From contig OY292274.1 of assembly GCA_958496175.1 (NCBI GenBank), positions 64,924,630 through 64,988,629 of the forward strand: 64,000 bases of DNA. The letters are read 5' to 3'. Position 1 is the first letter of the stretch, and every line of letters begins with the position of its first letter. Of the stretch, positions 3,662 through 54,720 are shown in pieces. A program made the position numbers and the translations under genes. The stretch is from Sisyra terminalis (taxonomy: Eukaryota > Arthropoda > Insecta > Neuroptera > Sisyridae). The notes under the pieces were generated by a model. That model searched no databases and had not been told where the DNA came from. It was given only the letters and a program-made list of their open reading frames with translations.

Positions 3662-3704
3662 TCTCCTGAAGAAGTTGCAAATAAATACCAACGAAACGTT
3701 GAGA
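3662..3704 (+). ncRNA. Candidate small hammerhead-type ribozyme motif
   Basis: Core CTGAAGA at 3666-3672, one extra A, helix II of GTTG (3674-3677) with CAAC (3689-3692), then GAA followed by the self-complementary ACGT at 3696-3699 and a T at the expected cleavage position 3700. Helix I can form from TCTC (3662-3665) and GAGA (3701-3704). The very short palindromic stem III would work only as a dimer. Small hammerhead variants are known from Penelope-like elements; activity here is not shown. Confidence 0.5.
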
Positions 3705-4690
3705 TAATTTGAAAATTTAACGTCTTATTATTTGAGTCCAAGTTGCCAAGAACATTATTAATTATTTATAGTGATGTTTTAATGTAGTTTTATTTACTGT
3801 AGCGTATTTATATGGTGAACTAACGGACAAGATACCATAGTAATGAAGGGCATACTGTAGCAACAATGAAGCTCTCATTTCTCCCAATTTCTTTGAAATT
3901 CGAGATCAACCGATTACTAAATGTAAAAGTTTTCAGACCGATAGAAAACAAAAAACGATTCTAAATGTTCCAAATCTGATTTTATCATTTCACTTCTCTT
4001 TCAACAATAAATTCGCTAAAACCGGCCACAATACAACAAAAGCATAGTCACAACAAAAGCCTTTCTCCATATTTCAATATTGCGATCTGGAGGAAAAAAA
4101 TCGCAATTCTCAACTTTTCATTTATAAGTTCCAATCTCATCTCCGACTCGTAAATATTGCAAATATTTCTTTGAAAAAATAGATGATAAACTCAATCCAT
4201 TTTGCATACTATTCCATATTACCAACTTTCTAAACTCAATCGTTTAACGTTAAAATTTTCAACGTTAAATTTCTTATTAAAAATCGTTATCACTGCATGC
4301 ATCTAATTAATTCCGACTAATGAAGATAAAAACGATGAAAAAAAATGTCGGTTTTTATTATTTATTATAAAATATTTCATTCGAAACATAAAAAAAATCC
4401 AACTTTTTCCTCTTAGATATATTGAATGACATTCATCGCAGGGAGTCGACGAGCATTAAATACTTTTATGATTTTTTCCGAAACGAAGATATAATTCCGA
4501 TAAAACCCAATTAAAATATACCAATTCCTCAAGATTCAGACTTAATTTGGATCTTTGAAGAAAATCAATAAATTTTATATGCAACTTCTAAGATTTCAAT
4601 TTTTTTTTAGATTGGGTTTGCATGATAACTTCCGTTTAATTTCACTTAACTCAATATAGTATTCAATATTTTATAAAATAATAAACTTAT
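3705..4690. other. No gene or element recognised
   Basis: AT-rich sequence with no convincing open frame or structured repeat. Confidence 0.5.
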
Positions 4691-5145
4691 TCGCAAAGAT
4701 GGAAAATTTGATATCAAATCCTGGAAATCCAAATTTAGTAAAAAAATAATACCAAACTTTTGGGATAATAGGGACAAAAGTCAGTAAAGATGCTAAAAAA
4801 TTGTTCCTAAATTATTGAACATAATTAAGATTCACAGCACAAATTCCGAGAAAAATTATTAATTATACATAGGGATGAAATATTGTTCATAAAATATTTT
4901 TCAAGTGAAACATCGATGATAAAAAAATTGTAGTTTATAAACGATATATCGATGTTTAAAAAAATCGATTTGCATCCTTAGGTGTTCCAAAGATGGAAAA
5001 TTTGGCATCAAATCCTAGAAATCCGAACTTAATAAAAAATAAATTCCAAACTTTAATAAACCTTTGGGATAATAGGGACAACAATTAAGATTCACAGCAC
5101 AAATATATATCGATGTTTGAAAAAATCGATTTGCATCCCAAGGTT
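4691..5145. repeat. Imperfect tandem duplication
   Basis: The stretch starting caaagatggaaaatttg near 4696 recurs from 4987. Both copies run through a gggataatagggacaa phrase and a gattcacagcacaaat phrase and end in a tatcgatgttt...aaaatcgatttgcatccc block. The second copy is shortened internally (about 160 versus 290 bases). A reversed match to the terminal block occurs at 51543-51592. Confidence 0.8.
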
Positions 5146-5249
5146 TTCCTCCATATATTGCAGTGACTTTTATGAATTAATTCTTTGATGTTTTTTTTTA
5201 AATCTGACATTAGTTTACCCCAATTTTAGATATACACATAGAATATGAG

Positions 5250-6140
5250 GACAAATATTTTAATTAAAATAGCTCAATGGAATCTTATTTATAAAAATCC
5301 CGTGTTACGATGTTTGTAATGAAACTCCTCCAAAACGGATGGATCAATTTGACTGATAAGATTAATATATTTTTATTTTCTGGTTACATCATAAGATTAT
5401 AAGAACACTTTTGGTTTTTATTAGGGCTCAATAAAAAAAATTAATTTTTAAATATCCTTATCATTGAATGCTTCTATGTATTTTATTATTACTTCCTTTA
5501 TCATTTTTATAAAAATAAAACGATAACCAAATTCTAAAAGCATCTGCATATATCACCCAAAAAGATTTTCATCATTTTTTTTTTGTTGATTTTTTAACCT
5601 TTACCAAAAAGAGTAAGGGTCGTTTTAAGGATTTTAAGGACCATAAGGGTCGTTGTGTTACTCTATCTACGCCACAATTGAAATAGCGCCTTATTATAGT
5701 AAATTTTGTACCACGCAAAAGAAGTCGAGGATAATAGTTATAGTCATTATGATGCGTCATGAAAATTGGACAGATACTTACTTTTTGTAAAAGAAAGTTA
5801 ATATGGCAATTAGATAATGGGGTTGGGGGGATCTAATTAAGTAAGAAATGTAGTATCATTTTAATCAAAAATTGGTTGTTTATAAAGAAATAGGGAACAT
5901 TCCTTATACATTGACATATACCAATCGATGTTAATGCAATTCGAGTTAATTCTCTTACTTCCCCACTAAAATTATCAAAGCCATCTATTAGAAACTAACA
6001 ATCTTATATGTATATAAAAATAGCGTGTTATGGTATTTGTAATTAAACTTCTTCGAAACGGATGTTCATGAAATTTTTTATGTATCTTTGGAAAGCATGA
6101 GAATCGGACGTAAAATATATTTCATACCTCTTGGAGATTA
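5250..6140. repeat. Two related dispersed repeat pieces in otherwise plain sequence
   Basis: 5280-5370 and 6001-6110 share an order of phrases: cttat...tataaaaat, a cgtgtta-type block, then taatta/gaaactcctc and aaacggatg. This type of text (related again near 19130-19230) is common at the ends of dispersed insect repeats. Between the two pieces I see nothing, and the minus-strand frame at 5572-5760 has no recognisable content. Confidence 0.45.
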
Positions 6141-6738
6141 GGGTGTCCCTCGAAATCTTTTGCAAATTTTTCCGCACGCTTGCCTATATATCATTTGTAA
6201 TCATCGATGCCTGTGATTTGTTATGAAAAACGCCTCGCAAAAGTATTATGCAATTTTATTTATTGAATTTGTGTTAAATTAATTATTAAATTCATATTTT
6301 GTCTAAGTGTTATAAATGCGCGTCATTTTGCCATTTCATTATGCATTTGTTATGTATTACAACGCCATGCGTGTAAAATTGTGTACAATTTATTTTAATT
6401 TATAAGAAATATTTTATTTGTTTGGGTATATTAGTGAACAGGCGGTTATATAGTTGGCCGTGTGAATCATAGGGAATCATAAGAATCCTAGGGATGCATG
6501 GGATCAAAACGTCTTTAACTTTGTATTTTGATTTCAAAATTATCAAATTTTAAAAGAAAATAATACCATCATAGATGTCACGCAGATGAAGTTGCGGGTA
6601 TTAGTTAGTAAGGGATATCAAGAAAATTGAAGTATTTTTCATTTTTGTTATGGCGTTTATCAATATGTGTTCCATACGTTAAGAGCGAAATAAATTTACC
6701 TGTTAGCTAGTATGGAATGCAAATATTCGAACTTTCAT
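6141..6738. other. No gene or element recognised
   Basis: AT-rich, without a supported feature on either strand. Confidence 0.5.
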
Positions 6739-6967
6739 CTGTTTATATGAAATAACATAATAGAGCTTGAAGGCCAAAATGTTAATGAGATAATAGCAGC
6801 TTTAAATATGCAGCTCAGGAATTTGGAACCAGTTTGAGGTGTTTATTATTTGTTATCATTTGTACTTACATTTACAACTGTTTTGGAATTCATAAATTAC
6901 ACCTTTGATCTGGCCTTTATCTCGTATTTTGGCCTTCAAGCATTACTATACTATTTCATATCAACAG
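6739..6967. repeat. MITE-like inverted repeat, 229 bp
   Basis: The left arm at 6739 (ctgtttatatgaaat, then gcttgaaggccaaaat) is matched by its reverse complement ending at 6967. The arms are about 50 bases with several mismatches, enclosing about 120 bases. No clear target duplication. Confidence 0.7.
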
Positions 6968-7844
6968 TTGAGAGCAGGTAGAATTCCTCACGAGTTTGGA
7001 CTTAAATCGGGGTCCCTCATAATATTGATCATTATGGACCAAAGGTTGATCCAATGAACTTAAATATTTATCTACCTGAATTCTATCGTACAATACAAGA
7101 ACCGCTTTATCAATTTCGATAATATTTTGTTTTCAGGTACTTCTTAGTGTTTCACCAAAAAAAAAAGAGTATAAAGGTCTCAAACAAGTGTTATTTAAAC
7201 AGTAGTACCAATATTTTATTCTGGATTTTCTTTTCGTTTTAATTTAAAGATAGCTTTCTTGATTTGATAGAAATTTTGTAATTAAGTTCAATTAATATTT
7301 CTTCAGAAAAATATTTAAATATTAATTATAAAAGTAGCATTCAGAAGAAGTCAGATTAAAATAAATTGATGGATACCCTTTAATAAGATACGAATTAAAC
7401 CCTTTAATTAAATATCAATTTTTTAAAGATATCAAAAATTCAGCATATTTTAAATCAGAGGTGGCCAATCCAAATGATATTGCGGATCATTTCGGAAATG
7501 CATCCAAACTCCTCTGGCGACCATTGAAGTTATATATCTCAAATTCTCCATACTAAATTTAGATAGACTGTTTACATTTGTACCTGTGAATGTTTTTATC
7601 TATTTCCTGCATTAGTAATATACTTATGATCGTAAAAAACGTCATTTTCAACGGTCAATACAATAGCCATTAATTGTCAATACTTCATTACTATGATCCT
7701 GCAGTGATTCTTAGACGTTTAGCAAATTTTCTCAAAACTTAGTTGAAAAAGTATATCTTGAAGATAAGTTACAAATAGTACAGCAAGGGATGCTGCTAGT
7801 TGCTAAGGAAGGGGTTTTTAATGTTCCAAGAACATATTTTTAAA
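6968..7844. other. No gene; possible hAT-type end
   Basis: A phrase at 7457 (cagaggtggccaatccaaat) resembles termini of hAT-type MITEs such as the one at 36653, but no partner end is clear. The rest is unassigned. Confidence 0.35.
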
Positions 7845-8545
7845 TCCAAGAGAAATTTTAATATTTTTTCAATTTTTTGACGCAACCATCAATTTTATGA
7901 CAAAATTTTATAGGACATTTTTTGTAGAGCACATTTTTTCCTATAACTTATCTTTATTAAAATTTTTGATATTTTTCACAGGTCGTAAGTTATTTGCATT
8001 AAACTGAAAATATTCGTAATTTTATTGTTTTAAATTAATAATATTCCCCGAATTATAATATTTTTAACATTAAAAAAATATTTTTTTTATTTTGATTAAA
8101 TAACTTAGAACCTGTGAAAAATATCAAAAACTTTTACAGAGATAAGTTATAGAAAAAAAATTGCTCTACAAAAAATGTCCTATAAAATTTTCTCGTAAAA
8201 TTGATGGTTGCGTCAAAAAATTGAAAAAATATTAAAATTTCTCTTTAGTTCAACTTTGACCTCGAATAACTTTTGAAGGAATCAATATATCTAAAACTTA
8301 TAAGAGACATTTTTTGTAGATCGTTCAATTTTCTACAAGAATATACCTTGATCATTTCGAAATACTGTCACCAACGTGAGCTATAAAATTCCAAAGTGCA
8401 AGACAATATTGTTCCCATGTTATTTAAATGGAAAATCGAAATTCGCGATGCGGCATTTCTTAATATTAAGAGCTTAAACTTTCACAGGATTTTTTTTAGC
8501 ATTCCCTACAATATTTTCGATATAAATAAGAAAAAAAATTCATCA
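7845..8545. mobile_element. Long foldback element, asymmetric copy
   Basis: 7849-8247 forms a hairpin of about 400 bases around a centre near 8047; the arms contain ttgacgcaaccatcaatttt and its complement. The right side continues to about 8545 in sequence that matches the outer right arm of the complete copy at 44948-45914, but the matching left outer arm is missing here. The open frame at 8396-8695 is a by-product of this arm. Non-coding. Confidence 0.85.
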
Positions 8546-9717: not shown

Positions 9718-9780
9718 CCTGTATGCAGTGGCGTAGCTAGGTAACCAAGGGCCCTGGGGCAAATAAAAAAATGGGGTCCA

Positions 9781-10930: not shown

Positions 10931-11642
10931 GCCAGTGGCGTAGCTAGGTAACCAAGGGCCTTAGGGCAAATTAAAAAATGGGGCCCACAGCTATGTAAAC
11001 TGATTAGGTTCTATCAAATAAAAATATGAAATATACAAAACTTTAAAAATGCTAAGCTACTTAAGCTCTTTTTTGTGCAGTGCAGGGCAGGTAATAAAAA
11101 TATTAAACAGTAACAACATAAATTACAATTAATATTTGGTGTAGGTTTGGCTAATAAAACGAAATAGAGAAGATTCAAGGGTTTATTTATATAAAGGTCA
11201 GGTCTACCAACTGACTTAATAACAATTATATTTACAATTTTTTCCTAGCTTTAGTTTTCGCAAAAGTATCAATGACTTCGTTTAAATCCAGGCTTGATGC
11301 GGTTTTGTTTTCAATTGCTATTAGCGATAAATGTCGGAGTCGAGTTTGGCCCATATTATTTCTTAAATATTTTTTTATTATTTTTAATTTGCTAAATGAC
11401 CTTTCAGCTGCTGCAGATGTGACATGAATTGTAAAGAATAATAACATTGCTGTAAATATTTTCGTTAGATCGCATTCTAGCACTCCATATTTGCTCATTA
11501 TTTCCTTACATAATTGATGAACTTCCAACTGAATTTCCAAAAGTTCAGTTCGATCGAGATTTCTGGTAAGGATTCGAGGGCCCCCTGAACTTGAGAACCC
11601 TGGGGCACTGCCCCGCCTAGCCCCTGGGTAGCTACGCCACTG
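10931..11642 (-). mobile_element. Internally deleted hAT element
   Basis: Termini cagtggcgtagcta at both ends in inverted orientation; 712 bp. It carries only the C-terminal part of a transposase on the minus strand. A sister copy of the same size and structure, reversed, is at 59464-60174. The 8 bases on its left (tatggtgc) are the complement of gcaccata, nearly the target duplication of the sister copy, so the two share an ancestral insertion site. Confidence 0.85.
11232..11540 (-). pseudogene. hAT transposase, C-terminal dimerisation domain only
   Basis: The 102-residue frame contains TSAAAERSFSKLKIIKKYLR at about residues 41-60, followed by MGQTRLRHLSLIAIEN. This is the conserved dimerisation region at the C-terminus of hAT transposases, which cut and rejoin element ends as multimers. 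The RNase H-like catalytic core and the BED zinc finger are missing, because full transposases run to some 600-700 residues. The frame reaches nearly to the element terminus upstream, so the deletion removed everything in between. The frame is still open in this copy; the sister copy at 59566 has an in-frame stop. It could at most make a dimerisation fragment, and no promoter is evident. Confidence 0.85.
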
Positions 11643-11650
11643 GCTGTATG

Positions 11651-12110
11651 CCTCTGGGTTTGTTGGGAACTAAACGAACAATAAAGGATTTGCTTATCCG
11701 TTAAACTCTTCGGAGTGCATTGTGCATTGTGAGTGACATGAGCGGTGATTTAACATAAAATTCATTTCACGTAAATTGCATAGTAGTCGTTGATTCGAGT
11801 TGGGAATAGGAAGTCGACCCCAACAGTCTTCACTTACTACTTCACTTACTTACTTACTTGTTGCATTATTAGCGTAAGTGCATCTTGTCAAGCATGGTTA
11901 CTCCTTCGGGCGCAACTTTCCTCTTGCAAATAGCCTCCAAATTACAGGTCTCAATCACATTCATATTGATATGCATTGATTACAGTCGCTGATTTAAAAA
12001 GGTTCTCAGCTACTTCATTGGAGTGGTAATCCTTTTTTTTTTTTGATTTAAAAATTTTTAATTTCGATCGGTGCATTAACTTGATAGTCATGTGTAAACA
12101 CAATGTGTAA
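11651..12110. other. No gene; short ACTT microsatellite
   Basis: 11828-11862 holds a run of actt/cacttact repeats. Nothing else is recognised. Confidence 0.5.
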
Positions 12111-12407: not shown

Positions 12408-13495
12408 GATGAAATTCAAGATATTGAGACGAATGTAAGATTTTATGAGTAGGATAAATGTAGGATTTATTTTACGAATTATTAACATATGTATTACATA
12501 AATTTATCCTGAATCCAAATTTGCATTTTCAATAAATAATACCAGAGCTTATGATAGTGGAAGTATGAAATAAATCCAGTGGTGGTACAGATGCAGGTAT
12601 CGTTTAATATTTGAAACTATTGTATTTGGACATCATTGGAATTACATTTTTCTCGATTGCGTGAAAATTCGTGCAGCACAGTAAAATATTATCATTTGCA
12701 TTAGAATTTTTAATTATTATCCATAAAAAATCTTCATGTCCTGAACTTTGTGGGTTTTAAATTTCATTGGAATCACAATCGTTCCCAAAAGGAGCAAATA
12801 TTATGATCGAACATATTGTTAAAAAAATTTGAACGAAATTCTTCATGAGCAACTTTATTTCGACGAAATTCTGAGTACCTAAGAAATCGGCTGTACATTC
12901 ATTTGAGTAGCACCTGAAAAACAGTTCGTAATATTATGTGATATCAGAATTAATTTTAAATTAGCTTTTATTTTATTGAAATTTCGTGATTAAGGACGAA
13001 ATATGCGATTAGAATATATTTAAGTACTAACTAGCATCATTTTCACTATTTTGCACAGTCGAATCATTATTAAACGTATAAGAACTATTATTTTTCTTAT
13101 TTAATAATGCTTTTCGGCGTGCCCGAAATTCACGAACATGATCTGTTGAACCTTTTGATGTCTTTATAGCCTTGTTTTTTTTTACTTTTTCTTGATAATC
13201 ATGACAATAATCCGTATTCATTCACGGCAAACTTGAAAATTAATTTTATTAAAATAATGAAATATTTATGCTCACAATTATAATAAGCAATTTAACACGG
13301 TTGTTATTGGTCGCTATGAAAACCATTCTCTAGTAGCGTAATACGCAGGCGCGCACAACCATAAGAAATACTAATGTTTCCTACCTCATTCTCTCTCATG
13401 TTAAATCTTATAGATTTATGTATATGTTTCTCTTTTTATTGCCGCTTTCCGTTTCCGTTTCATAAAATTTCAAGCCACAACAATACTAAACAGTT
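12408..13495. repeat. Dispersed 1.1 kb repeat, copy 1
   Basis: Matches 53413-54498 in the same orientation over its full length, from ttcaa.atattgagac to ccacaacaatactaaa, with scattered substitutions and small indels. It contains a gtaatacgcaggcgcg block and a short minus-strand frame at 13027-13221. No terminal inverted repeat found. Class unknown. Confidence 0.8.
13027..13221 (-). pseudogene. Short basic ORF inside the 1.1 kb repeat
   Basis: The 64-residue frame starts MNTDYCHDYQEKVKKNK and has a basic segment, VREFRARRKALLNKK, at about residues 29-43. The corresponding stretch in the second copy (about 54040-54235) keeps the basic segment but suffers indels in the T-run and loses the frame. 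Its presence in both copies at the same place suggests it descends from an element-encoded peptide, but I recognise no family. Confidence 0.3.
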
Positions 13496-14010
13496 TTCAC
13501 TTCAAAATTAGTAAAAATTATCCAGGTAATCCTCTTACTATAATGTTACTGATCCTTGGGAAAATGGCATAATTTTGTAGCAGATGAAAGACTTAAGACC
13601 TTAATTTAGATTTGAAGTGACTCTTAAGGTAGCACTTTATGCAATGGCTGGATAGTATTGCGGTTTAAAAATGGAAAAACCTATACCGAGGCTAAATGTA
13701 AAATAGTTTAAGGTATATGTATGATATCTAGTACATTTTTTCTTCTTACTTATCTTCTGGGAGATATTTAAGTCCAACATTGACAAAACTGACAAATAGC
13801 AAAAATTGGATATTGAATGGAAATAAAATGACAGTTGAAACCAATGACAATAATTATTATGTTGGTATTACACTCACATGTAAGTGTTTAAATTATTTGT
13901 TTTCTGTATTTGTCGCCATATATACATTTGCCTAATATATTAACATTAAAAGCAAATATTATGTTTAAAATTGTAAAATATTTTATTTATCACAAACTAC
14001 TAATAATTGA
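13496..14010 (-). repeat. Possible Helitron-family fragment
   Basis: 13775-13960 (cattgacaaaactgacaaat, later gacagttgaaaccaatgaca and tgatattaaaagcaaat-type text) matches sequence found after the Helitron-type ends at 24551, 25256, 41054 and 63849. A diverged end may be the ctag at 13726. Before it I see nothing. Confidence 0.45.
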
Positions 14011-15199: not shown

Positions 15200-16745
15200 A
15201 ATTCACATGAAAGAAGATCCAACTCGGAACTTCACCAAAACTTTATACAAGACCATAATTGAAACCGACTATAAAACCTCAGCTCCAATGGTTTACCAAA
15301 AATCCATAAAATAAATATGCTAATCCGACCGGCGGTAGTGGGGATTATAAACTTGCTCCTGGATATTGGTTAGCCCAAAAAATTAGTACAAGCCATCAAA
15401 TCAGGCATCATATTGAAAGAAAATTATTCATTAAAAAACAGATATGAATTTATGAATAATACTAAAAACCTAAAACTACCACAGAACATCAAAATGGCAT
15501 CACTAGATATTGTCAACTTATATACAAATTTCCCTATCGAAGGAACAATGAAAATTGTGGAATTTAATGTTATGGCATCAAAAATATATAATTATATGGT
15601 AATCAACGACTAAATGAACTTGTTAACCACCATACAACAAAACTATTTCACTTTAAATCGAAAATTTTATCACCAAAAGGAAAACTTGGCCATGGGTTCC
15701 CCTTTATCAGGACTACTAGCCGATATTTACATGAATCACTTTGTAAAGAAATAAATTATGAACAATACCTACAAAAATAAAATAATTTATTATGGAAAAT
15801 ATGTAAACGATACATTTATATTATTTAATGGAACTATCCGACAGATTGACAATATGGTTTCCGATCTGAACGAAATTAACCAGAAAATAAAATTCACTTC
15901 AGATCACAAACTAAATGGAACAATCAACTTTTTCGACACAACAATCACCAATGAAAATGGAAAGTTGTCATACAATATATACAGAAAACTAACAACAATG
16001 AACACAATTATCCATGAAACATCATTTCACCAAAACCAAACCAAAAAATGGCAGCTTACAACAGTTTACTGTATAGAGCTTTAAAGTTCCCTCTTAACAC
16101 CAAAGCTCGTGAAGAAGAATTTAAAATAATTAAACATATAGCCACTACTAACGAATACAAAAGCTCAATCGTGGACAAAATAATATCGAAATTTACTAAA
16201 AAAATCCATTCTTCCAACTCCAACAAAAGAAAACAAAAAATATATAAAATCAAAGTTCAATAATATATTTAGTTTTCCAATCGCCAACTTCCTAAAGAAA
16301 AATAACTTCAATATCGCATTTTCAATAATCAACAACATGATGAAAATTCTTTAGCCATTAGAGAACAACGAAATTACAATGAAAAATAAAACCGAAATAT
16401 ATAAAATTAGATATGGTTCCTGTGAATAATTCTACATTGGCCAAACTGGTAGATCTTTGGGAAAAAGATATCAGCAACATACATCCAAGGAATCTACTTC
16501 AACAACAACTTCCAATTTTACAAAACATCTTTATGACGAAGATCATCAATGCTTAAATTTTCGAAACAAATTTTAAGCCATTACATATTTGCTAGAAGTG
16601 ATCACATATGAATATCCTGGAAGAATATGAAATATACAAAGGACACAAACTAGATCCCAATAACATCTTAACGATAAATTATATAAAACAAACAACCTAT
16701 ATGAAATTGTTTACAACTGACAAAATTATCATTACCTGATGATGA
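15200..16745 (+). pseudogene. Penelope-like element, reverse transcriptase plus GIY-YIG endonuclease, decayed
   Basis: In order on the plus strand: a degraded block resembling LYGLPKIHK near 15285, SLDIVNLYTNFPIEGT near 15510 (first catalytic aspartate region), KYVNDTFILF near 15797 where Penelope-like elements normally have VDD, an FFDTTI block near 15930, a region with NSLLYRALKFPLNTKAREEE near 16060, and finally an endonuclease-type domain at 16394-16555 reading IYKIRYGSC, a stop, then FYIGQTGRSLGKRYQQH. The latter is the GIY-YIG signature. Several frameshifts and stops separate the blocks and the 5' end is missing. Penelope-like elements are telomerase-related retroelements; this copy cannot function, both because of the breaks and because an active-site aspartate has become asparagine. 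A Helitron follows at 16769. Confidence 0.9.
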
Positions 16746-20664: not shown

Positions 20665-21487
20665 ACCAACATTAGGGTGTCCATTATTTCCCAAATTGAT
20701 TTTTTTACAGCGATCGCCCCCTGAATTTTTAGTTTAAGATACAAAAAAAAAAAAATATCCAATACAATTAAGCTTTTAATTTCTTGATTAAACCGTGCCG
20801 GAATCATTTTACTTTTACCATTTAAATAACATGGGATTATTTGACTTTTTACTTTTATTTTTTTTTCTCAGAAACAAACGGATAAAAAGATTTAAGGTCA
20901 AATTATTCTGACGTAAAATTTAACGCTCTACAAAAAAGGTCTCTTATGAATTTTCGATTAAATCACTCCATTAAAAGTTATTCAACATTTAACTTGTGTC
21001 TAATATAAATCTTGCAATATTTTCAACTTTTTGCTCATTTTTAAATTTTTTAACTACAAAATCATTGGAAGAGAAGATAAAAATTATTATCATTAGAGCG
21101 CCAGTGATTATTTGTGTTAATTTGAAGGCTTGAATTGAAAATTAAATAAAAAAAAATATTTTTTGACAATTAAAACAGGTGGCATAAGATCCGAATTCGC
21201 TATAGTCGTGAAATTCAATTTATCCAGGATAAATTTTCGTATTTTAATCAATATTTTGTACCTACGAAGTGAATTCCATACTAAGTAATGAGACTATCGA
21301 CAAATTTTTACCATTTCACCTGACGCCATCTATGAGAAATTTCTTAGAACTTGTAGTCAACAAATTAAATGTTGAATAAATTACATAAAACAAATTGAAC
21401 AGTGTATACAATATATAAAATATATTGCAGTCCAATTTATTAACATAAACTTGAACAGAAGTTCAAACAAAAATATTCGTGACGTAT

Positions 21488-21534
21488 TGCCCAGTTACGT
21501 ATTTCGATTGCCAAGCAATCTTCCTCAGTGGTCA
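21488..21534 (-). ncRNA. Hammerhead-like motif A, slightly degenerate
   Basis: Minus strand: TGACCA, core CTGAGGA, extra A, GATTGC paired with GCAATC, GAA, then ATACGTAA in place of the palindrome ATACGTAT. The conserved U before the cleavage position has become A, so this copy is probably inactive. Confidence 0.45.
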
Positions 21535-21614
21535 TCAAGTAGTTTGGATCACTCCGTAACTGCTTTGTGATGATTCATGTGAATCATGTGAATAGAGTGA
21601 TCCAAACTACTTGA

Positions 21615-21661
21615 TGACCACTGAAGAAGATTGCTTGGCAATCGAAATACGTATCAGGGCA
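21615..21661 (+). ncRNA. Hammerhead-like motif B
   Basis: Helix I strand TGACCA, core CTGAAGA at 21621, extra A, helix II GATTGC/GCAATC closed by TT plus one G, GAA at 21644, palindrome ATACGTAT at 21647-21654, C at the expected cleavage position 21655. The first base of the downstream helix I strand does not pair. Confidence 0.5.
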
Positions 21662-21985
21662 ATACATTACGAATATGTTTGTTTGAACTTCTGTTCAAGT
21701 TTATGTTAATAAATTGGACTGCAATATATTTTATATATTGTATACACAGGGTAACTGTTCAAAGTCAGCGAAAAAATCTTATTTTGATTATACAAATTGA
21801 ACAAATTAATTCAACTGTGTATACAATATATAAAATATATTGCAGTCCAATTTATGTAGTATAATTTAACATAATAATATACAAATTTAATATAATAACA
21901 TATAAACTTAATATAATAATATATAAAAATCATACCACCAACATAAATTTGAACTGAAGTTCAAACAAAAATATTCGTGACGTAT

Positions 21986-22032
21986 TGGCCAGATACGTAT
22001 TTCGATTGCCCAGCAATCTTCATCAGTGGTCA
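21986..22032 (-). ncRNA. Hammerhead-like motif C, canonical core
   Basis: Minus strand: TGACCA, core CTGATGA, extra A, GATTGC/GCAATC, GAA, palindrome ATACGTAT, C at the cleavage position, then TGGCCA to close helix I (five of six pairs). It keeps every core position except for the extra A. Confidence 0.55.
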
Positions 22033-22100
22033 TCAAGTAGTTTGGATCACTCCGTAACTGCTTTGTGATGATTCACCACTTGTGAATCCAAACTACTCGA

Positions 22101-22147
22101 TGACCACTGAGGAAGATTGCTTGGCAATCGAAATACGTATCTGGGCA
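22101..22147 (+). ncRNA. Hammerhead-like motif D
   Basis: TGACCA at 22101, core CTGAGGA at 22107, extra A, GATTGC/GCAATC, GAA at 22130, ATACGTAT at 22133-22140, C at 22141, then TGGGCA closing helix I with five of six pairs. Confidence 0.55.
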
Positions 22148-22673
22148 ATACGTCACGAATATTTTTGTTTGAACTTCTGTTCAAATTTATGTTGGTGGTA
22201 TGATTTTTATATATTATTATATTAAATTTGTATATTATTATGTTAAATTATACTACATAAATTGGACTGCAATATATTTTATATATTGCATACACAGTAT
22301 AACTGTTCAAAGTCAGCGAAAAGATCTTATTTTGAAATTAATTCAAGTTAAATGTTGAATAACTTTTAATGGAGTGATTTATTCGAAAGTTCATAAGAGA
22401 CCTTTTTTGTAGAGCGTTAAATTTTACGTCAGAATAATTTGATCTTAAATTTTTTCATACGTTGGTTTTTGAGAAAAAAAATTAAAAGTAAAAAGTCAAA
22501 TAATCCAATGTTATTTAAATGGTAAAAGTAACATGATCCCGGCACGGTTTAATCAAGAAATTAAGAGCTTAATTGTATTGGATAGTTTTTTTTTGTATCT
22601 TAAACTAAAAATTCAGGGGGTGATCGCTGTAAAAAAAATCAATTTGGGAAATAACGGACACCCCAACCAACAT

Positions 22674-26000: not shown

Positions 26001-27224
26001 AAAATTAATAATAAGGAAAACAGAGAAAGAGAGGATATGAATATGAAGAGAAGATACATTTTAAGACTCGTATTTAAATATTTTTCGTTTTTTAAATTCA
26101 TACAATTTTATGAATCATTCTATATTTATTAGTCAGATTTTTTTCTTTATGCAACGGCAATAACTTCACAAATAAAACTAAACCTCCCCGAAAATGTATA
26201 CATTACCATTATTTAGTTGATTTTTTTTCCCTCATACACAAAACTATGATGTCATCCAGCGTCGAAGAACTGCAAAAGGAGGGCACTTGATGAATTAAAC
26301 ATCAACAGGCATCCCGAAACCGAAAATTTATATACTTGAATTGTGATTCTTTGTAAAGTTTATGGAGGTCAAAAATTGTTGGCAAAACCAAAGATTTATA
26401 TATTTAACCATTTCCAATCTCGAGAGAAAAATGCAAATCGATTTTTTTTCATTCGCCAAAAATATGGACAGTAAAAGGATTGAAATTTATGTAAATTGAA
26501 TATAAGTTATTATGTTTGTTTTTATTTATTGTTTTTAAAGTGGAATTTATTAGGTTTTTAGGTACGCGATTTTTTTTTTTTGATACTTTTTCTGCTTCGT
26601 GTTTGTTGGATTTTTTTCGCGAGAAAATTCCCGTTTTTGAAATTATTGAGCATCTAAATGTCTGTGAATTCCGGATTGCAATCAAGTTTCATGGTTATTA
26701 AAACATATTACCGGAAATCCTTACGACTTGCAACAGAGATGCCGGAGGAATTAAATGCTATACTTAATATGAAACGGTTTAAACGGTAATTAACGCAATT
26801 CATAAAAGAAAGTTATTGGAAGAAATTAAACGATTTTTACGTTTGATAAATTTTTAACAATTTACGATGCATTAGATGTTTTTTTTTTTCTCTTAATTTC
26901 TATTGTAAAATTGCTTCAAAAGTCATAAATAACTGACGAAACGTCCTACTTATTTAAATTTATTACCATAACTTTTTCTTCTTCCTACGACTTTGCCAAA
27001 TTTCTTCACGATTTACGAAATATATTTTTAAATAAACAGTACCTAATTAAAAATTTAAACTGAAAATGGGGGGAAGGGGGGCAAATGAAAAGAATCGGCT
27101 CCAAAACAAGAAAGAGAACAAAGGGACGATGAAATCGTGTTGGGAAAAGACCGGGAAAGATACTCATATCGATTTATTGATGAAATTTAATGGAGGAACC
27201 CAGAAAAAAAATTGTTTTTATTTT
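26001..27224. other. No gene recognised
   Basis: Frames at 26449-26685 (minus) and 26516-26701 (plus) overlap and are not supported. 26932 has the isolated text ctgacgaaacgtcc. Confidence 0.5.
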
Positions 27225-27412
27225 TTTTTTAAATAAGAAGACAATTCAGATTGTTTAAGATCGGTTGATTTTATTTAATATTTTTACTATTCAATTAGCT
27301 ACGTTTCGTTACGTATCGTAACTTCATCAAGCTTCTATAAACAATTAAAATAATTACAAAATATGCCAATCATACATAAATTTCAAAACTATAATAATGT
27401 ACATATTAGGAT
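27225..27412 (-). repeat. Hammerhead-bearing dispersed repeat, copy 1
   Basis: Matches 54499-54690 over about 190 bases, from aatt.ag.ttgtttaagat to catacataaatttcaaa. It contains the motif at 27294-27336 and abuts the foldback at 27413. Confidence 0.7.
27294..27336 (-). ncRNA. Hammerhead-like motif, core mutated
   Basis: Minus strand: AGAAGC, then TTGATGA where CTGATGA is expected, extra A, helix II GTTAC/GTAAC, GAA, palindrome ACGT, A at the cleavage position, then GC. The first core base is changed from C to T, so activity is unlikely. Confidence 0.45.
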
Positions 27413-32654: not shown

Positions 32655-32935
32655 GTTAATACAATATATAAAAAAATATATTGTGGTCTTATTTATGTAA
32701 TATAATTTACAAAAGTGAACTATGTATGCCAAGCAATCTTCATCAGTGGTCATAGCAGTTACGGAGACTAATATTACTTGATGACCATTGATGATGATAG
32801 TTGGGCAATTGAAATACGTATCTGGACAATACGTCAATAATTAATTTGTTTGAACTTTTGTTCAAATTTATATTATAAATATTTATAGTTTACTTTTGTA
32901 AATTATATTACATAAATAAGACCATAATCCATGGT
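32655..32935. repeat. Hammerhead-type foldback, diverged copy
   Basis: Related to the inner palindromes of 21395-22300: left arm with ccaagcaatcttcatcagtg at 32729, right arm with tgatgaccattgatgatgat at 32780 and ttgaacttttgttcaaattt at 32849. Arms end in an inverted tatattgtggtcttattta / ataagaccata pair. The left motif has lost its GAA-palindrome half. Confidence 0.7.
32782..32827 (+). ncRNA. Hammerhead-like motif, degenerate
   Basis: TGACCA, then TTGATGA in place of CTGATGA, a decayed helix II, GAA, intact palindrome ATACGTAT, C at the cleavage position and TGGACA. Core C lost; probably inactive. Confidence 0.35.
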
Positions 32936-33032
32936 TGTTTAAGTTATATTTAAGTCCTTGTCTTTTTACATATAGTAATTAAATTATGGGCAATAAGGAC
33001 GAAGCTTCTTGTGGAATCTTATTTATTTTATC

Positions 33033-33070
33033 GCCAACGTTTCGTCAATTATTCCTGACTTCTTCTGGGC
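33033..33070 (-). ncRNA. Hammerhead-like motif, degenerate, in a separate repeat
   Basis: Minus strand: GCC, then CAGAAGA where CTGAAGA is expected, extra A, helix II GTCA/TGAC, GAA, ACGT, T, then GGC closing helix I. One core base is changed (T to A). The arrangement is otherwise the same as at 3662 and 54571. Confidence 0.4.
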
Positions 33071-33229
33071 TCAAAATTTAAAAATTACTCCACAAATGTC
33101 ATAAAAATAAGCTGTAAAATAACCCAACTGGTAGAACAACAGACCAAGAATACAATTTGGTATTGATAAATAAAAAAAAAATTCAAAAATGTTTTTTAAA
33201 CAATTTTTTAGTTAAAAAATTAGTTCAAT

Positions 33230-46748: not shown

Positions 46749-47500
46749 AGTAGCTAGATAGTTTTGAGACTTTAAACCCCTTGCCAGACACCTGACACTT
46801 GTTACCTACCAAAGCCACTATGATCCAAACTTTATAGTTACCTATTGTTCCTACCTGTATTGGGAGTAATAATGCAATATTTCGATTTGTAACAAACGTG
46901 TAAAAAATACCAACTTAACTTTATAAAAATAATAAAGCGTAATTTTTGATCAAAATAAGATTGTTTCGCTGACTTTGACATTTATACTGTGTATACAATA
47001 TATAGAAAATATTGCGGTCCAATTTATGTAGTATAATTTATATATAATAATATATAAAACTCCTACCATAAACATAAATTTGAACAGAAGTTCAAACCAA
47101 AATATTCGTGACGTATTGCCCAGATACCTATTTCGATTGCCAAGCAATCTTCCTCATCAAGTAGTTTGGATCACTCCGTAACTGATTTGTGATGATTCAC
47201 TTTGGGATAATAGAAACCATTTCATCCATTGCCAAACCTTTATAATTGTGACAACCCCTTGCCAAACACCCTTAAGCATTTATTAATTGTAATTATACTT
47301 ACGTTAAAACATAAAAGCAAATTTGCTATACTTATTACTTGGGTAACTATTGGAAGATATTTCAACAGTAGCTAGATAGTTTTGAGACTTTAAACCCCTT
47401 ACCAGACACCTGTTACTTGTTACCTACCAAAGCCACTATGATCCAAACTTTCTAGTTGCCTATTGTTCTTACCTGTGTTGAGAGTGGGGATGCAATATTG
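46749..47500. repeat. Direct repeat pair around a hammerhead-type repeat fragment
   Basis: 46749-46882 and 47365-47497 are direct copies (gtagctagatagttttgaga ... cctattgttc.tacctgt). Between them, 46975-47200 is a single arm of the 21.4-22.3 kb repeat. Its hammerhead motif (minus, 47117-47160) has lost the CTGA core and has atagg instead of atacg, so it is dead. The frame at 46950-47147 is a by-product. Confidence 0.75.
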
Positions 47501-49404: not shown

Positions 49405-51290
49405 GTTTTAAATTTGGAAAAATCGTATTTTATTTTTTCAAGAAATTTGGTCAGTATCTATGGAAAACTGGGGGTCAGTACCTCCAAGAAGATTAAGAAC
49501 TCATGTCCTAAGACTTAAAAAGATAAAAGAAAAATTCATGTTTTGGGGTAAATTATTGTAGAATTTTAGATCCTCGATGATAATAGATTAATAAAATATT
49601 CCGAGGACTAGGATCAAAAATAATCGATTTAAACTTCATTTATTACATGCGACGTTTCGGCTCCTTTCGTTTTCTTGAGGAAGGCTCAATAGAGGAGCTG
49701 AAAATTAAATATATGCCTATGTTTTAAATTTGGAAAAATCGTATTTTATTTTTTTCAAGAAGTTTGGTGAATATCTATGGAAAAATGGGGGTCAGTACCT
49801 CCAAGAAAATTAAGAACCCCTGTCCTAAAATTTAAAATGAAAAATTAATGTTTTGGGGTCAGTCCAATTCAGTCGGTCCAGCACTGGTTGCTTAATTATT
49901 TTTTTAAATTCTGATATTTTAATATTTTAATTTTATTGTTTTTTGTTTTCCTGTGGTGGCCATATTAGTATTACTAGGCGCAGACATTTTTGCACTTTTA
50001 AGGGTTTGCGGAAACTTGATTATCTCAGGCCCTATTTGTCCTATCAAAATGAAACTAAAAGTAGTGTGTTCATAAAAATATAGGCTACAAGGTTGTAATA
50101 AGACGTTTTTACCTAAATCTAATTCTAAGGGGTGAAATTTCAGCCTAAATTTTTAGCTCTCAGTTGTAAAAACTCAAATTTTCACGAAAAGATTGTGAAG
50201 GAAGGGAAAGAGTCTACACGTTAAAACTTTTTTTACAAACAATTAGGTACTAGTTGTATTCAAAAACAAAATTTGAAGTCTGAGACTTTAAGGCTTTTTA
50301 AAATAAAAAATAACAAAATTTGAAAATTTTCAAAATTTGCAATTTTCTTAGCCCAATATCTCTGGTGGGGGACCAGATAAAAATCTGAAATATCACCCCA
50401 TTATAGTACTGTATGATAGTATTATGCACTTAAAATTTGGAGTTTGAAATTTGATTAGGAGCAAAGGTATTGCAAGCACAAAATGTCAAAATAATGCATA
50501 CTTCCAGTAGGTGAATATAATGTATTTAACCATTTAATATGTGACATATACTTGGCAAAACGGCCATTTTACACAAAACAACATATGCTCTGGGCTGACT
50601 GTTATTCATATTTTAAATTAAAAACATATACTTCTAGTTGTAACCGATTATTTTTGATCCTAGTTGTCTGAATGTTTTGGGGTAAATTTCAGGGAAAAAT
50701 ATCTTGAAATGTTTTATGTCTGAAAGCAAGGGCAAATCTTCTTTGGGGTTTATCAATTCGAACCATGAAAATGGTTATATTTAATTGAAAACCATCCCTT
50801 GTTTCATCTTCCCTTAGTTTTTGAAGAAATATATCCATTTTCATGGATCAAATTGGTAAAAACCAAAGATTTTCCCTTGCTTTCAGAAATAAAACATTTC
50901 AAGATATTTTTCTCTGAAATTTACCCCTAAACATTTGTGATTCTTAATCTTGTTGGAGGTACTGACCCCCACCAGTTTCACATGGACATCAAAATTATTA
51001 ATCAAAATTAATTAACTTTGATTAATTTAACAAGCTAGCCAAATGTAAAAAAATTCATCCCTTGATTCATGGTTCGTAAGAGCAAATTACGAAATATTCA
51101 ACTAAATGTTTTTACTTTCAAAAATAGCGCTAATCCTCCCTTAATTTTCGATTAAATATAACCATTTTAATGGATCAAATTGGGAAAAACCAAAGAAGGT
51201 TTACCCTTGCTCCCAGGACTAAAATAGGTGAACACATTTCAAGAAATTTTTCCCTGAAATTAACTCATAAACATTAATTTTTCTTTCACC
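49405..51290. repeat. Nested repeat block
   Basis: Direct repeats at 49405-49555 and 49721-49861 (tttggaaaaatcgtatttta ... gggggtcagtacctccaaga), with a reversed piece at 50942-50985. An inverted repeat pairs 50675-50790 with 50815-50935 (gtaaatttcaggg / ccctgaaattta-type arms), and a third arm lies at 51165-51280. An element bounded by inverted 20-mers is nested at 49607-50664. Confidence 0.7.
49607..50664. mobile_element. TIR-bounded insertion, 1.06 kb
   Basis: actaggatcaaaaataatcg at 49607-49626 is repeated in inverted orientation ending at 50664. Close to the left end, 49650-49690, a gcgacgtttcgg...ttgaggaaggctc stretch resembles the hammerhead-bearing ends seen elsewhere but with a poor core. 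No coding sequence. Confidence 0.6.
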
Positions 51291-51299
51291 CTTTTAAGA

Positions 51300-51535
51300 A
51301 GTAAAACTCTTAGGAGATAAAAGAACAGAAATGACTTATGAACTATTTTCGGCAATATGGGACACAGGCACCTCACCAACCGAATGGTTTAAATCTATTT
51401 TAATTCCCTTACATAAAAAAAGAATGAATACCAACTATAGAACTATAGCCCTGGCATCTTATATAAGTAAAATATTACTAAACATCATAAATGAAAGATT
51501 CGAGTCTATATTCCATTCTTAAATATCAAAGAGGC
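51300..51535 (+). pseudogene. LINE reverse transcriptase fragment
   Basis: Plus-strand translation: VKLLGDKRTEMTYELFSAIW, then GTSPTEWFKSILIPLHKKRM, NYRTIALASYISKILLNII, NERFES and a stop. The order W--G--P-EW--SI-IPLHKKG---NYRTIALISH-SKILL-II-ERL is the N-terminal finger/palm region of reverse transcriptases from RTE- or CR1-like LINEs. It is cut on both sides: nothing precedes it in frame and an unrelated repeat piece starts near 51540. It is distinct from the other LINEs in the window. Confidence 0.8.
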
Positions 51536-51539
51536 TTGA

Positions 51540-51739
51540 TTAGGAATGCAAACGATACATCGATTTTTTCAAATATCGATATATCGTTCATAAACATCCC
51601 GTAAACAGTCTTATTACTTCAATCTTTTATCGGAACTACGGGAAAACTATGTTGGAGGGTTGTCGACGTAATAGAGACCATGGAACGAAAAAGTTTTAGA
51701 AGCACTGGTGTAGATTCCGTCCAAAGAGGATCCTTATAT
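51540..51739. other. Short match to the 4.7-5.1 kb repeat, then unassigned
   Basis: 51543-51592 (aatgcaaacgatacatcgat ... atatcgatatatcgttcata) is the reversed terminal block of the repeat at 4930-4980. The remainder is unassigned. Confidence 0.5.
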
Positions 51740-51905
51740 CAAGGTTTATAAAATACACAGGTGGCCTCATGGTGGCTACGTGATGGATACGTGACGTAAC
51801 CAGAAGAAATTTGTACATATCTTCAGACTGATTCAATTTCAAAATTCTTCGTATGACGTCATTTTTTTTTCTAATGGAGCAACCTGTGTAATTTACAAAC
51901 CTTGC
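51740..51905 (-). repeat. Single unit of the 56.7-57.4 kb array, reversed
   Basis: ggtttataaaatacacaggt to cctgtgtaatttacaaacct with tatgacgtcattttt inside is the inverse of one array unit, at somewhat lower identity. Its ends are inverted repeats of each other, so the unit itself is a small foldback/MITE. Confidence 0.8.
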
Positions 51906-53412
51906 CCTTATATAACATCCTCAATCATATGAACACTCCAATATACCTCATACATCTAATGAAGCAACTATACCAGCAAAACAAAACGGTAGATGATGAT
52001 CTATTGACTATTAGTATTCGAGAAAAGCTGGTCTAACATTATTGGCCAAAAGTGTACATTATAAATAGCTTATAAATTACTCTGAAAGTTACTGAAAAAT
52101 GATCAGAAAGAAGTAGTAGTACAATAGTAGAAACAGTCTTTAATTTGTTTTAAAAAAAAATAACTCCCACATTGTCCCACATCAACACTCAACGCCAGAA
52201 AATATCCAAACCAATCAATCATTTCTGGCGCGAATTTAATCAAAAGCCAATTCTCAAAAGAAAAATAACCCTTTTTCAAATCTCTCACTTACGCCCAACT
52301 TCACTCGAATACTTTGCCCAAACGAGTCCATTGAACGACTCAACGATTAGATCTAATTCCATTCCGAATGATTAATACTCTCGACAATTATCCAATTGAA
52401 TAGAAAACTACATAGCCAAAACCCCAAAAAAAAAAAAAAATGTAATTTATATTATAAAGTATTTGTAAACGCAAAGAAATACTCAATAATTCTCTCCATT
52501 GAAAGCCACAAATAATGACACCTCAAAGAGAATCGATTTGTAAGAGAAGAATCTTTTGAATATATAAAAGTAGACAAATCTCAATGTTTCAACTTCACAA
52601 ATTACCCTTTCAATGCGTAAGTCTTTGTGAAATGGTAAAAAAAAAAACTTTGATTATTCAAATAAACCTTTCGTTATACGCAATAAATCAATCTCTGTTT
52701 CAGTAAATATGCAAAATCTGTCGTCCAATATTAGCCTGTTATTAATATAAGCGACGTGAATTTATATACAAGTTGAATAACTCGAGTGAAGTTTGTAATT
52801 TATCCTCCACAACGGTTATTTATGGACTGGAAGACTATCATTTTATGGACGATACAAAGAGAGTTTATCATCATAACAATTTCTATTATATTTGAAATAA
52901 AACTCACAAGTTTCATCGTTTTTTTTTTCTCCAATGCTTGATATTCACAGCAAAGAATGACTTCTTTTTTTTTTTTTCGATTTGTTGCGTTCAAAGTAAC
53001 TTTAAATCTCGCTTTTCCATAACGGGCAATGGTTTATTGTACCAGTATTGGTTTTTAGTTGTAGAATGGCGATAATAAAACCTGTCTCAAAAATATGGTC
53101 ACACAAGGCTCAATCAAAATGTAGATGTTTTCAGTGAAAGAAAAAAAAATCAATGTACAACTAACCTGGGTGTTACGATTTATCAGAATTTCTATTGGAA
53201 AAAAAAAAAAACTTAACAACAGGTGTCAATGATGTCAAAGACTTTAAGGCTTTAAAAAACGTAATTAACACTTCATAGATTCAAACGAGAATCGTGGCTA
53301 ATTGGAAGGTTCATTATAGTGTTAATAATCAATAAGCAATCAATCGATGATTCGATATTATTCTCAAAAATAAAGAAATATTCATCATATTTTTTCAATG
53401 AGACAATAAAAA
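51906..53412. other. No gene recognised
   Basis: No supported frame. Overlapping frames on opposite strands at 52103-52375 and 53273-53507 carry no motif. Confidence 0.5.
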
Positions 53413-54498
53413 ATATGAACTTCAATATATTGAGACAAATGCAAGATTTTATGAGTAGGATAATTGTAGGATTTATTATACGATCTGTTAACATATACAT
53501 TACATAAATTTATCCTAAATCCAAATTTGCATTTTCGGTTAAATGATACGAGAGCTTATGATAATGGAAGTATGAAATAAATCCAGTGGTGGTAAAGTTG
53601 CAGGTATCGTTTCAAATTTGAAACTATTATATTTGGACATCCTAGGAATTACATTTTTTTCGATTGCATGAAAATACGTGCAGCACAGTAAAATATTATC
53701 ATTTGCATTAGAATTTTTAATTATTATCCATAAAAGATCTTCATGTTCTGAACGTTGTGGGTTTTAAATTTCGTTGGAATCACAATCGTTCACAAAAGGA
53801 ACACATATTATGACCGAACATATTATTAAAAAATTTTTAACGAAATTCTTCATGGGCAACTTTATTTCGACGGAATTGTAAGTACCTAAGGAATTGGTTG
53901 TACATTCATTTGAGTAGCACCTGAAAAACAGTTCGTAATATTATGTGATATCAGAATTAATTTTAAATTAGCTTTTATTTTATTGAAATTTCGTGATTAC
54001 GGACGAAATATGCGATTAGAAAATATTTAAGTACTAATTAGCATCATTTTCACTATTTTACCCAGTCGAATCATTATTAAATGTATAAGAACTTATTTTT
54101 CTTATATAATAATGCTTTTCGGCGTGCCCGAAATTCACGAACACGATCTGTTGAACCTTTTGACGTCTTTATAGCTTTGTTTTCTTTATTTTTTTTTTTT
54201 TTGATAATCATGACAATAATCCGTATTTATTTATGGCAAACTTGAAAATTAATTTTATTAAAATAATGAAATGTTTATGCTCACAATTATAATAAGCAAT
54301 TTAACACGATTGTTATTGGTCGCTATGAAAACCATTATCAATTAGCGTAATACGCAGGCGCGTACAACCATAAGAAATACTAATGTTTTCTACCTCATTC
54401 TCTCTCATGTTAAATCTTATAGATTTATGTATATGTTTCTCTTTTTATTGTCGTTTTTCGTTTCATAAAATTTCAAGCCACAACAATACTAAATAGTT
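53413..54498. repeat. Dispersed 1.1 kb repeat, copy 2
   Basis: Collinear with 12408-13495. It retains the gcgtaatacgcaggcgcg block near 54345 and the short basic frame remnant near 54130. The right boundary joins the hammerhead-bearing repeat directly. Confidence 0.8.
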
Positions 54499-54720
54499 GT
54501 TTAAATAAGAGAAAAATTCAGGTTGTTTAAGATCTTTAATTTTTTAATTTTTTAATATTTTATCATTTCAAAAAGCAACGTTTCGTTACGTAATCGTAAC
54601 TTCCTCAGGCTTCTATAACAAATTAAATTAATTACAAAATATGTCAATCATACATAAATTTCAAAATTATAATAATATATATATAATATAGATCATATAT
54701 AAATATAAATACCACTAGAT
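54499..54720 (-). repeat. Hammerhead-bearing dispersed repeat, copy 2
   Basis: Matches 27225-27400. It contains the best-preserved short-stem motif of this type (54571-54614) and ends in a TA-rich microsatellite. Confidence 0.7.
54571..54614 (-). ncRNA. Candidate small hammerhead-type ribozyme motif, well preserved
   Basis: Minus strand: helix I AGAAGC (54614-54609), core CTGAGGA, extra A, helix II GTTAC/GTAAC with a six-base loop, GAA, palindrome ACGT, T at the expected cleavage position, then GCTTTT completing helix I with all six pairs (one G-U). All invariant core bases are present apart from the extra A. Confidence 0.6.

What the first reader, a model, noticed from the sequence alone, without database searches (positions are those of the whole stretch)
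3662..54614. Small hammerhead-ribozyme-like motifs recur in several unrelated repeat families
At least ten sites share the order helix I, CTGANGA, one extra A, helix II, GAA, a self-complementary stem (ACGT or ATACGTAT), and an H base at the cleavage position. The best are 54571-54614 (-), 21986-22032 (-), 22101-22147 (+), 21615-21661 (+) and 3662-3704 (+). Helix I and helix II sequences differ between families yet keep pairing, which points to selection or to independent capture of a working RNA. Seen directly: the motifs and pairings. Known: small hammerhead variants acting as dimers occur with Penelope-like elements, and this window also has one. Inference: these were active in non-autonomous retroelements.
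Basis: partly seen in the sequence, partly recalled or inferred. Interest (0 to 1): 0.8.

Follow-up and report, generated by a model that had tools for sequence, protein, structure and literature searches.

The report
Penelope retroelement ends carrying hammerhead ribozymes
The small hammerhead-like RNA motifs are real and belong to the ends of several families of Penelope-like retroelements, whose copies in this genome record how the elements spliced and inserted themselves.

Summary
The motifs are real. The window holds five strict sites; 60 shuffled windows together held one. The genome holds 3,813 exact matches against 0 for the reversed pattern. Helices I and II covary between families. 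Rfam's models miss those tested. They are not independent captures: they sit in pseudo-LTRs of Penelope-like elements (PLEs). Family G lies 20 nt after a decayed GIY-YIG PLE ORF. In 38 sampled same-family pairs, all head-to-head, 34 carry the ~30-nt PLE 'tail' on exactly one arm, and 24 have flanking repeats of 9 nt or more. Ribozyme, tail and inverted pLTRs are known for PLEs. Two things I did not find in print: in six families a GT-AG intron ends 4-5 nt before the ribozyme, with spliced and unspliced copies coexisting; and the two arms share splice state in 34 of 35 typed pairs, though arm lengths often differ. This fits one sense RNA copied twice per insertion, from two start sites; two RNAs from one source are not excluded. 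Self-cleavage is untested, and copy ends show no exact pile-up at the cleavage site.

The parts
3608..3768 (+). Family C PLE pLTR copy, unspliced type (intron end TTTTAG then TTCTC), no tail; hammerhead at 3659-3707
15207..16735 (+). Decayed, 5'-truncated PLE ORF: reverse transcriptase and remnant of the EN region
   Evidence: 65-82% identity to open stretches of the L085 PLE by tblastn; a 109-aa part has 150 scored genomic matches; 5' limit judged by eye against L085
16736..16744 (+). CTGATGATG, start of a family-H hammerhead just after the PLE ORF end; the rest is decayed
   Evidence: read by eye against family H at C1:2528144/2528227 and L085:3738
21402..21791 (.). Family G inverted-pLTR insertion: hammerhead on - (21528) and + (21621), tail on the right arm only, 12-nt flanking repeat ACAAATTGAACA at 21390-21401 and 21792-21803
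   Evidence: tail read by eye
21814..22334 (.). Second family G insertion: hammerhead on - (22026) and + (22107), tail on the right only, 12-nt flanking repeat AAATTAATTCAA on both sides
   Evidence: the flanking repeat was read by eye, whose script returned a tail-to-tail match of the same length instead
26920..26945 (+). Partial hammerhead, 3' half only, B-like
   Evidence: CM match E 0.0049; sequence
27223..27336 (-). Family D pLTR copy, unspliced type, core mutated (TTGATGA)
32727..32871 (.). Family G inverted fragment, degenerate hammerhead at 32791 (+)
32970..33072 (-). Family B pLTR copy, spliced type, core CAGAAGA
47036..47200 (.). Family G inverted fragment, degenerate hammerhead at 47157 (-)
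49565..49661 (-). Family E pLTR arm, decayed; a short E match lies at 50635-50678 (+)
54497..54628 (-). Family D pLTR copy, unspliced type (TTATAG then AAGC); best-scoring hammerhead of the window at 54570-54615

Best explanation
The motifs are minimal, helix-III-poor type I hammerhead ribozymes in the pseudo-LTRs of several Penelope-like retroelement families. In families A-F the hammerhead opens a module of about 105 nt plus an optional ~30-nt tail, taken to hold the two reverse-transcription start sites, with an ATG-GAY in the tail of four families. In families G and H the hammerhead follows the end of the PLE ORF. In families A-F a spliceosomal intron ends 4-5 nt before the ribozyme, so the whole ribozyme lies in the 3' exon. 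Inferred cycle: sense RNA from the pLTR, spliced or not, is bound by the PLE protein. Both target strands are cut and each primes a cDNA, one from the inner and one from the outer start site, on an RNA of the same splice state and most simply the same molecule. The two 5'-truncated cDNAs are joined head to head between flanking repeats. Shown: anatomy, covariation, introns, one-tail rule, concordance. Inferred: same RNA, self-cleavage as dimer or with the protein, and the ribozyme's role.
For: 3,813 genomic matches against 0 for the reversed control. Covariation: 93.1% of cells paired, 26 double-change cells against 8.7 shuffled, 0 of 500 shuffles reach these. 38 same-family -/+ adjacencies against one -- and no other order. 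Exactly one tail in 34 of 38 (permutation mean 21.9, 0 of 20,000 reach it). Flanking repeat of 9 nt or more in 24 of 38, against about 3% for mismatched flanks. Splice state concordant in 34 of 35 typed pairs (permutation mean 21.1, 0 of 20,000). GT-AG introns in families A-F. Family G hammerhead lies 20 nt after the stop of a decayed ORF with a GIY-YIG piece. The PLE RT of L085 is nearest to telomerase among solved structures.
Against: No direct link between a PLE ORF and families A-F was found; there the case rests on tail, inverted pairs, flanking repeats and ATG-GAY tails, and D and E tails have no ATG. For H both linked hammerheads are decayed. No copy ends pile up exactly at the predicted cleavage site, so use of cleaved RNA as template is unsupported. 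GIY-YIG matches are below Pfam's cut-off. Four of 38 pairs break the one-tail rule. Splice state could be partly a subfamily marker, and two RNAs from one source would also be concordant. Mates are nearest relatives in only 16 of 76 comparisons. Rfam's hammerhead models do not match.
Confidence: 0.8

Rival explanations
1. The conserved fold is a protein-binding or priming structure of the PLE RNA, and the hammerhead core is kept for binding rather than self-cleavage.
For: No inspected copy ends exactly at the cut site. In the anole PLE, cleavage needs the protein and is dispensable for insertion in vitro (PMC11167929, section part read).
Against: The invariant letters are the hammerhead core letters, an H follows the helix III palindrome (in A1 only with a six-base helix III), and helix III is self-complementary, with G-U pairs in A1, in the families read.
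Confidence: 0.2
2. The two arms of a pair come from two different RNA molecules of the same source locus, with a fixed strand-to-start-site assignment, not from one RNA.
For: Gives the same concordance and one-tail rule. Arm lengths are often unequal, and arms are rarely nearest relatives (16 of 76).
Against: Needs two extra rules. Mates share rare variants more than re-paired arms do (45 against 25.5, p 0.0008), but 12 of the 45 come from one pair and one source locus would explain it too. In vitro, start-site use did not differ between strands (PMC11167929).
Confidence: 0.35
3. The inverted pairs arise by snap-back self-priming of one cDNA, in the manner proposed for rotifer PLEs.
For: Head-to-head palindromes; self-priming is discussed in PMC3846280 (passages seen).
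Against: Snap-back copies one arm from the other and predicts equal tail state; 34 of 38 pairs differ. Arm lengths often differ widely.
Confidence: 0.05
4. They are DNA-transposon fold-back elements or MITEs that happen to carry the motif.
For: Inverted arms.
Against: Precise intron loss between copies, variable 5' truncation with a constant 3' end, PLE tail, PLE ORF in family G.
Confidence: 0.02
5. Chance matches in AT-rich repeats.
For: Short motif.
Against: Shuffles, reversed control, covariation.
Confidence: 0.01

Closest known systems
[quoted passage not shown] Luense et al. 2017: neither held, known here through passages of citing papers PMC7761336, PMC7229834, PMC6155905)
   Same: Minimal type I core, little or no helix III, in PLE pseudo-LTRs, thousands of dispersed motifs in many metazoan genomes, proposed dimer action.
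   Different: Here the ribozyme directly follows a 3' splice site in six families and a PLE ORF end in two. Whether the extra A/T after CTGANGA was described I could not check.
Poseidon of Anolis carolinensis, PAc (PMC11167929)
   Same: Hammerhead near the ORF start, two adjacent RT start sites that define the tail, extension of both target strands.
   Different: That work used one element in vitro; here 38 sampled genomic pairs show, in 34, one start site per arm and, in 34 of 35 typed, the same splice state on both arms.
Adineta vaga Penelope elements (PMC3846280)
   Different: That paper's passages lean to self-priming on an antisense template, and say an unspliced sense one cannot be excluded. 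Spliced copies here indicate that sense, spliced RNA was copied.
Metazoan retrozymes (PMC7229834)
   Same: Type I hammerheads in short repeats.
   Different: Retrozymes are tandem repeats, mostly with fuller hammerheads; here inverted pairs.

Membership tests
PLE-type small hammerhead ribozyme | CUGANGA and GAA core in type I order between helix I and II | tested here: met
PLE-type small hammerhead ribozyme | Helix I and II kept by compensatory change | tested here: met
   3 of 4 helix I pairs and 4 of 5 helix II pairs change on both sides among 8 family sequences; G left out of that count
PLE-type small hammerhead ribozyme | Short self-complementary helix III and H before the cut | tested here: met
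   ACGT, ATACGTAT, ACGCGT, and ACGTGT by G-U pairs in A1; sub-family A1 needs the six-base reading to have H
PLE-type small hammerhead ribozyme | Self-cleavage at the predicted site | not testable with these tools
   bench assay needed; genomic ends give no support
Rfam hammerhead families | Match at or above gathering score | tested here: not met
   (0 matches in the window and in 20 motif-bearing loci); no hammerhead even at E up to 10
Penelope-like element pLTR | Linked ORF with telomerase-like RT and GIY-YIG EN (families G and H) | tested here: met
   ORFs are decayed or interrupted and GIY-YIG scores lie below Pfam's cut-off
Penelope-like element pLTR | Linked ORF with RT and GIY-YIG EN (families A-F) | tested here: inconclusive
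   no linked ORF in the held stretches; ATG-GAY in tails of A, B, C, F only
Penelope-like element pLTR | Head-to-head inverted pLTRs | tested here: met
   38 of 39 adjacent same-family site pairs
Penelope-like element pLTR | ~30-nt tail on one of the inverted pLTRs | tested here: met
   34 of 38
Penelope-like element pLTR | Target site duplication of variable length | tested here: met
   24 of 38 with 9 nt or more; both window G insertions 12 nt (second one by eye)
Metazoan retrozyme | Tandem direct repeats of ~150-450 bp | tested here: not met
   1 of 39 adjacent same-family pairs is in the same direction
DNA-transposon MITE | Fixed terminal inverted repeats, no RNA stage | tested here: not met
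   spliced copies and 5' truncation

The most novel reading that the evidence does not exclude
A Penelope-like insertion is made from a single RNA copied twice: two reverse transcriptases of a dimer start ~30 nt apart on the same spliced or unspliced sense RNA, each primed by one target strand, and the two cDNAs meet head to head. The hammerhead marks the 5' edge of the module that does this, and the intron ends right at that edge so that splicing always hands over an intact ribozyme to the template.
Probability: 0.4. Interest if true: 0.78.

Novelty: new variant of a known kind. Interest (0 to 1): 0.6.

Why it matters
How Penelope-like elements insert is still an open question in the papers seen: sense or antisense template, one RNA or two, why inverted pLTRs, why an optional tail. 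Spliced and unspliced copies in one genome serve as natural labels of the template RNA. They point to sense, spliced templates, and the arms of a pair carry the same label. The join between a 3' splice site and a ribozyme, seen in six families with different introns, suggests a functional unit that can be tested. There is also an annotation gap: Rfam's models matched none of these motifs in the window or in 20 further loci.

Tried and rejected
Chance was rejected by shuffles and a reversed-pattern control. MITE or fold-back DNA transposons were rejected because copies lose introns precisely. Retrozyme tandem repeats were rejected because pairs are inverted. Snap-back self-priming was rejected because tails differ between arms. 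The miRNA-family hits, all below gathering scores, are taken as inverted-repeat effects (not tested further).

Tried without result. Palindromes centred on the cleavage site, family A only: no exact one; one place with 2 mismatches, not centred on the cut. Copies whose arm starts downstream of the core: 20 of 174 found, 17 read; none starts exactly at the cut, five start 2-6 nt downstream and one 2 nt upstream by BLAST ends, which are not base-exact; I draw nothing from this loose cluster. Tail against longer arm: 13 to 7, 18 undecided, p 0.26. Mate as nearest relative: 16 of 76. The small trees give 6, 9, 2 and 3 minimal changes of splice state in A, B, C and E; they rest on ~100 nt and I did not test support. 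My first symmetry measures of palindromes span the centre and should not be read as arm length; one search replaces them. A homologue search with the window PLE piece found nothing; with L085 it found 918 proteins.

Dropped before counts. types families A-F only, 125 of the 151 sites; G, H and unassigned sites are left out. Three of 38 pairs with an untyped arm are left out of the splice count. The one discordant pair (10366296/10366649) has only a 6-nt flank match and may be two insertions. The site 8673706 was lumped with family C though its helix II differs. Families with the extra T have no flanks read apart from H. The stretches cover all 100 places printed of its 3,813, so all 38 pairs come from 0.4-10.4 Mb of contig C1.

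Papers. Passages: PMC11167929 (part 2 of its main section also read), PMC3846280, PMC7229834, PMC6155905, PMC7761336, PMC10085705, PMC11620745, PMC12910113. Others only in search listings. Cervera 2014, Luense 2017, Craig 2021 and Arkhipova 2017 were asked for and are not held (in one search the identifier was my own guess). Arkhipova 2003 on introns in PLEs was seen only as a reference entry; that the Drosophila virilis Penelope has an intron is recalled.
Full report
What was checked. The five best sites of the finding are present as described. A strict definition (CTGANGA, one extra base, helix II of 4 bp or more, GAAA, palindrome of 4 or more, H) gives 5 sites in the window and one in total in 60 dinucleotide shuffles. 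The window lies in a genome of 376.6 Mb in 11 contigs. The pattern CTGANGAAG, 14-24 bases, CGAAACGT matches 1,904 times forward and 1,909 times reverse, and the reversed control not once. With C, G or T in place of the extra A there are 224 more matches (control 2), mostly T among the places listed. In the sampled loci 143 of 151 sites, decayed and chance ones included, are best read with one extra base. Rfam finds no hammerhead in the window at any threshold tried, and nothing at gathering score in 20 motif-bearing loci.

Families and covariation. At least eight families with different helix I and II sequences are present, A to H, with further ones of the extra-T type. Eight representatives (two A sub-families, B, C, D, E, F, H) give 93.1% paired cells, 26 cells changed on both sides against 8.7 in shuffles, and a covariation score of 0.972 against 0.202, with 0 of 500 shuffles reaching these three; the number of pairs with a change on both sides (7) is reached by 61 of 500 and that of further pair types by 2. 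Slid controls give 28-52% paired. G was left out because MAFFT misplaced its longer helix III. Single-strand folding gives helix I and II with an open core for B, C and D; A1, E, F, G and H fold partly otherwise. A covariance model from these eight finds four sites in the window below E 1e-7.

What carries them. I fetched stretches around the 100 places printed, about 305 kb with the window after merging. Copies of families A-F share a fixed 3' end about 105 nt after the core and are truncated at variable 5' points. Among 125 typed sites of families A-F there are 38 adjacent same-family pairs in -/+ order, one in -- order and none otherwise; 49 sites are unpaired. In a pair two copies stand head to head with their 3' ends outward. 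In 34 of 38 pairs exactly one arm carries about 30 nt more (18 left, 16 right), in 3 none and in 1 both. [quoted passage not shown] Flanks of 24 of 38 pairs share an exact repeat of 9 nt or more, against about 3% when flanks are mismatched, so such a pair is one insertion. The two family G insertions in the window (21402-21791 and 21814-22334) each have a 12-nt flanking repeat and a tail on the right only (the tails and the second repeat read by eye).

Link to PLEs. The window holds a decayed PLE, about 15207-16735. Its ORF end is followed at 16736 by CTGATGATG, the start of the family H hammerhead, the rest being decayed. A related copy, L085, has RT and an EN region with a GIY-YIG motif and again CTGATGA at 3738, behind an apparent insertion that separates it from the ORF. 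The L085 RT matches RVT_1 and is nearest to telomerase reverse transcriptase among solved structures; 918 homologous proteins were found, and the few listed ones that bear an organism's name are insect proteins. For family G a longer copy at C1:8519820-8521000 (-) shows an inverted pLTR arm, a decayed, frameshifted ORF with a GIY-YIG piece (E 0.0011, under Pfam's cut-off), in another frame an open end ...HHKAVTE and stop, and the hammerhead 20 nt later. For A, B, C and F the tail contains ATG-GAY, reading MDTTNLS, MD, MDESNQ and MDEIQND; D and E tails have no ATG. A direct ORF link for A-F was not found in the stretches held.

Introns. In A-F each family has two upstream contexts. One ends in a T-rich stretch and TAG or CAG, 4-5 nt before the core; the other has a different sequence. 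The second context is found in the first as an upstream exon followed by GT: introns of 61-63 nt (A, 6 copies), about 162-166 (B), 120-121 (C, 3 copies), 203 (D, 1 copy), 70-71 (E, 3 copies) and 81 (F, 1 copy). In B, 6 of the 10 copies with an exon found have GTTAGT at the junction; the others are decayed or misaligned there. So spliced and unspliced copies coexist, and spliced sense RNA has served as template. The whole minimal ribozyme, helix I included, lies in the 3' exon.

Same label on both arms. Of 35 pairs with both arms typed, 34 agree in splice state (18 unspliced, 16 spliced). Permutation within families gives a mean of 21.1 and a maximum of 32 in 20,000. The exception has no convincing flanking repeat. 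Among the 24 pairs with a flanking repeat of 9 nt or more, 23 have exactly one tail and all 21 typed ones agree. The arms often differ in 5' length and in many pairs together fill the insert, so they look like two separate cDNAs. Mates share rare variants more than re-paired arms (45 against 25.5, p 0.0008, with 12 of the 45 from one pair), but they are nearest relatives in only 16 of 76 comparisons.

Mechanism. The simplest reading is that one RNA is copied twice, once from each start site, each time primed by one target strand, and the cDNAs are then joined head to head. A dimeric PLE protein was predicted, and extension of both strands was seen, for the anole element (PMC11167929). Two RNAs from one source with a fixed assignment of start sites remain possible. 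The suggestion in PMC3846280 of self-priming on an antisense template does not fit tails on one arm only or spliced copies. The ribozyme's role is inferred: its downstream product would start about 70 nt upstream of the nearer start site, and cleavage would cut the template, so it may act late or only with the protein. I saw no sign in copy ends that cleaved RNA is used, though only family A was searched genome-wide.

Novelty. Hammerheads, tails, inverted pLTRs and introns in PLEs are each known or cited as known. The adjacency of the 3' splice site and ribozyme, the same splice state on both arms, and the one-start-site-per-arm count were not seen in the passages read. Searches were made, in a library that lacks the two key hammerhead papers; only asked for hammerhead, Penelope, splice site and intron together (one paper, a review). 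I therefore rate it a new variant of a known kind.

Noticed in passing
window 13388-13500 and 54400-54510: By eye the two regions are copies of one repeat; the family D pLTR copy at 54497-54628 appears to lie in the second only, so 13.49 kb may be its empty site.
   Followed up: no
window 412-1435 (-): Non-LTR retrotransposon-like reverse transcriptase (RVT_1, E 8e-21 for 836-1435); the neighbouring open stretch 415-774 has no Pfam match.
   Followed up: partly
window 11235-11669 (-) and 59437-59763 (+): Two related copies of a hAT transposase C-terminal dimerisation piece (PF05699), in opposite directions.
   Followed up: partly
window 56960-57352 (-): The translation repeats a unit of about 55 aa, and the DNA gives a sub-threshold miRNA-family hit at 57008-57236.
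   Followed up: no
G000 C1:8601353/8601619 and 10040184/10040336: Two inverted pairs whose arm-to-arm similarity continues well beyond the element ends, as if a larger palindrome had formed after insertion.
   Followed up: no
G000, one search list: A further family CTGAAGATGCGACCCGGAGAGGTTGCGAAACGT with the extra base T recurs in the list, several times as close -/+ neighbours; flanks not read.
   Followed up: no
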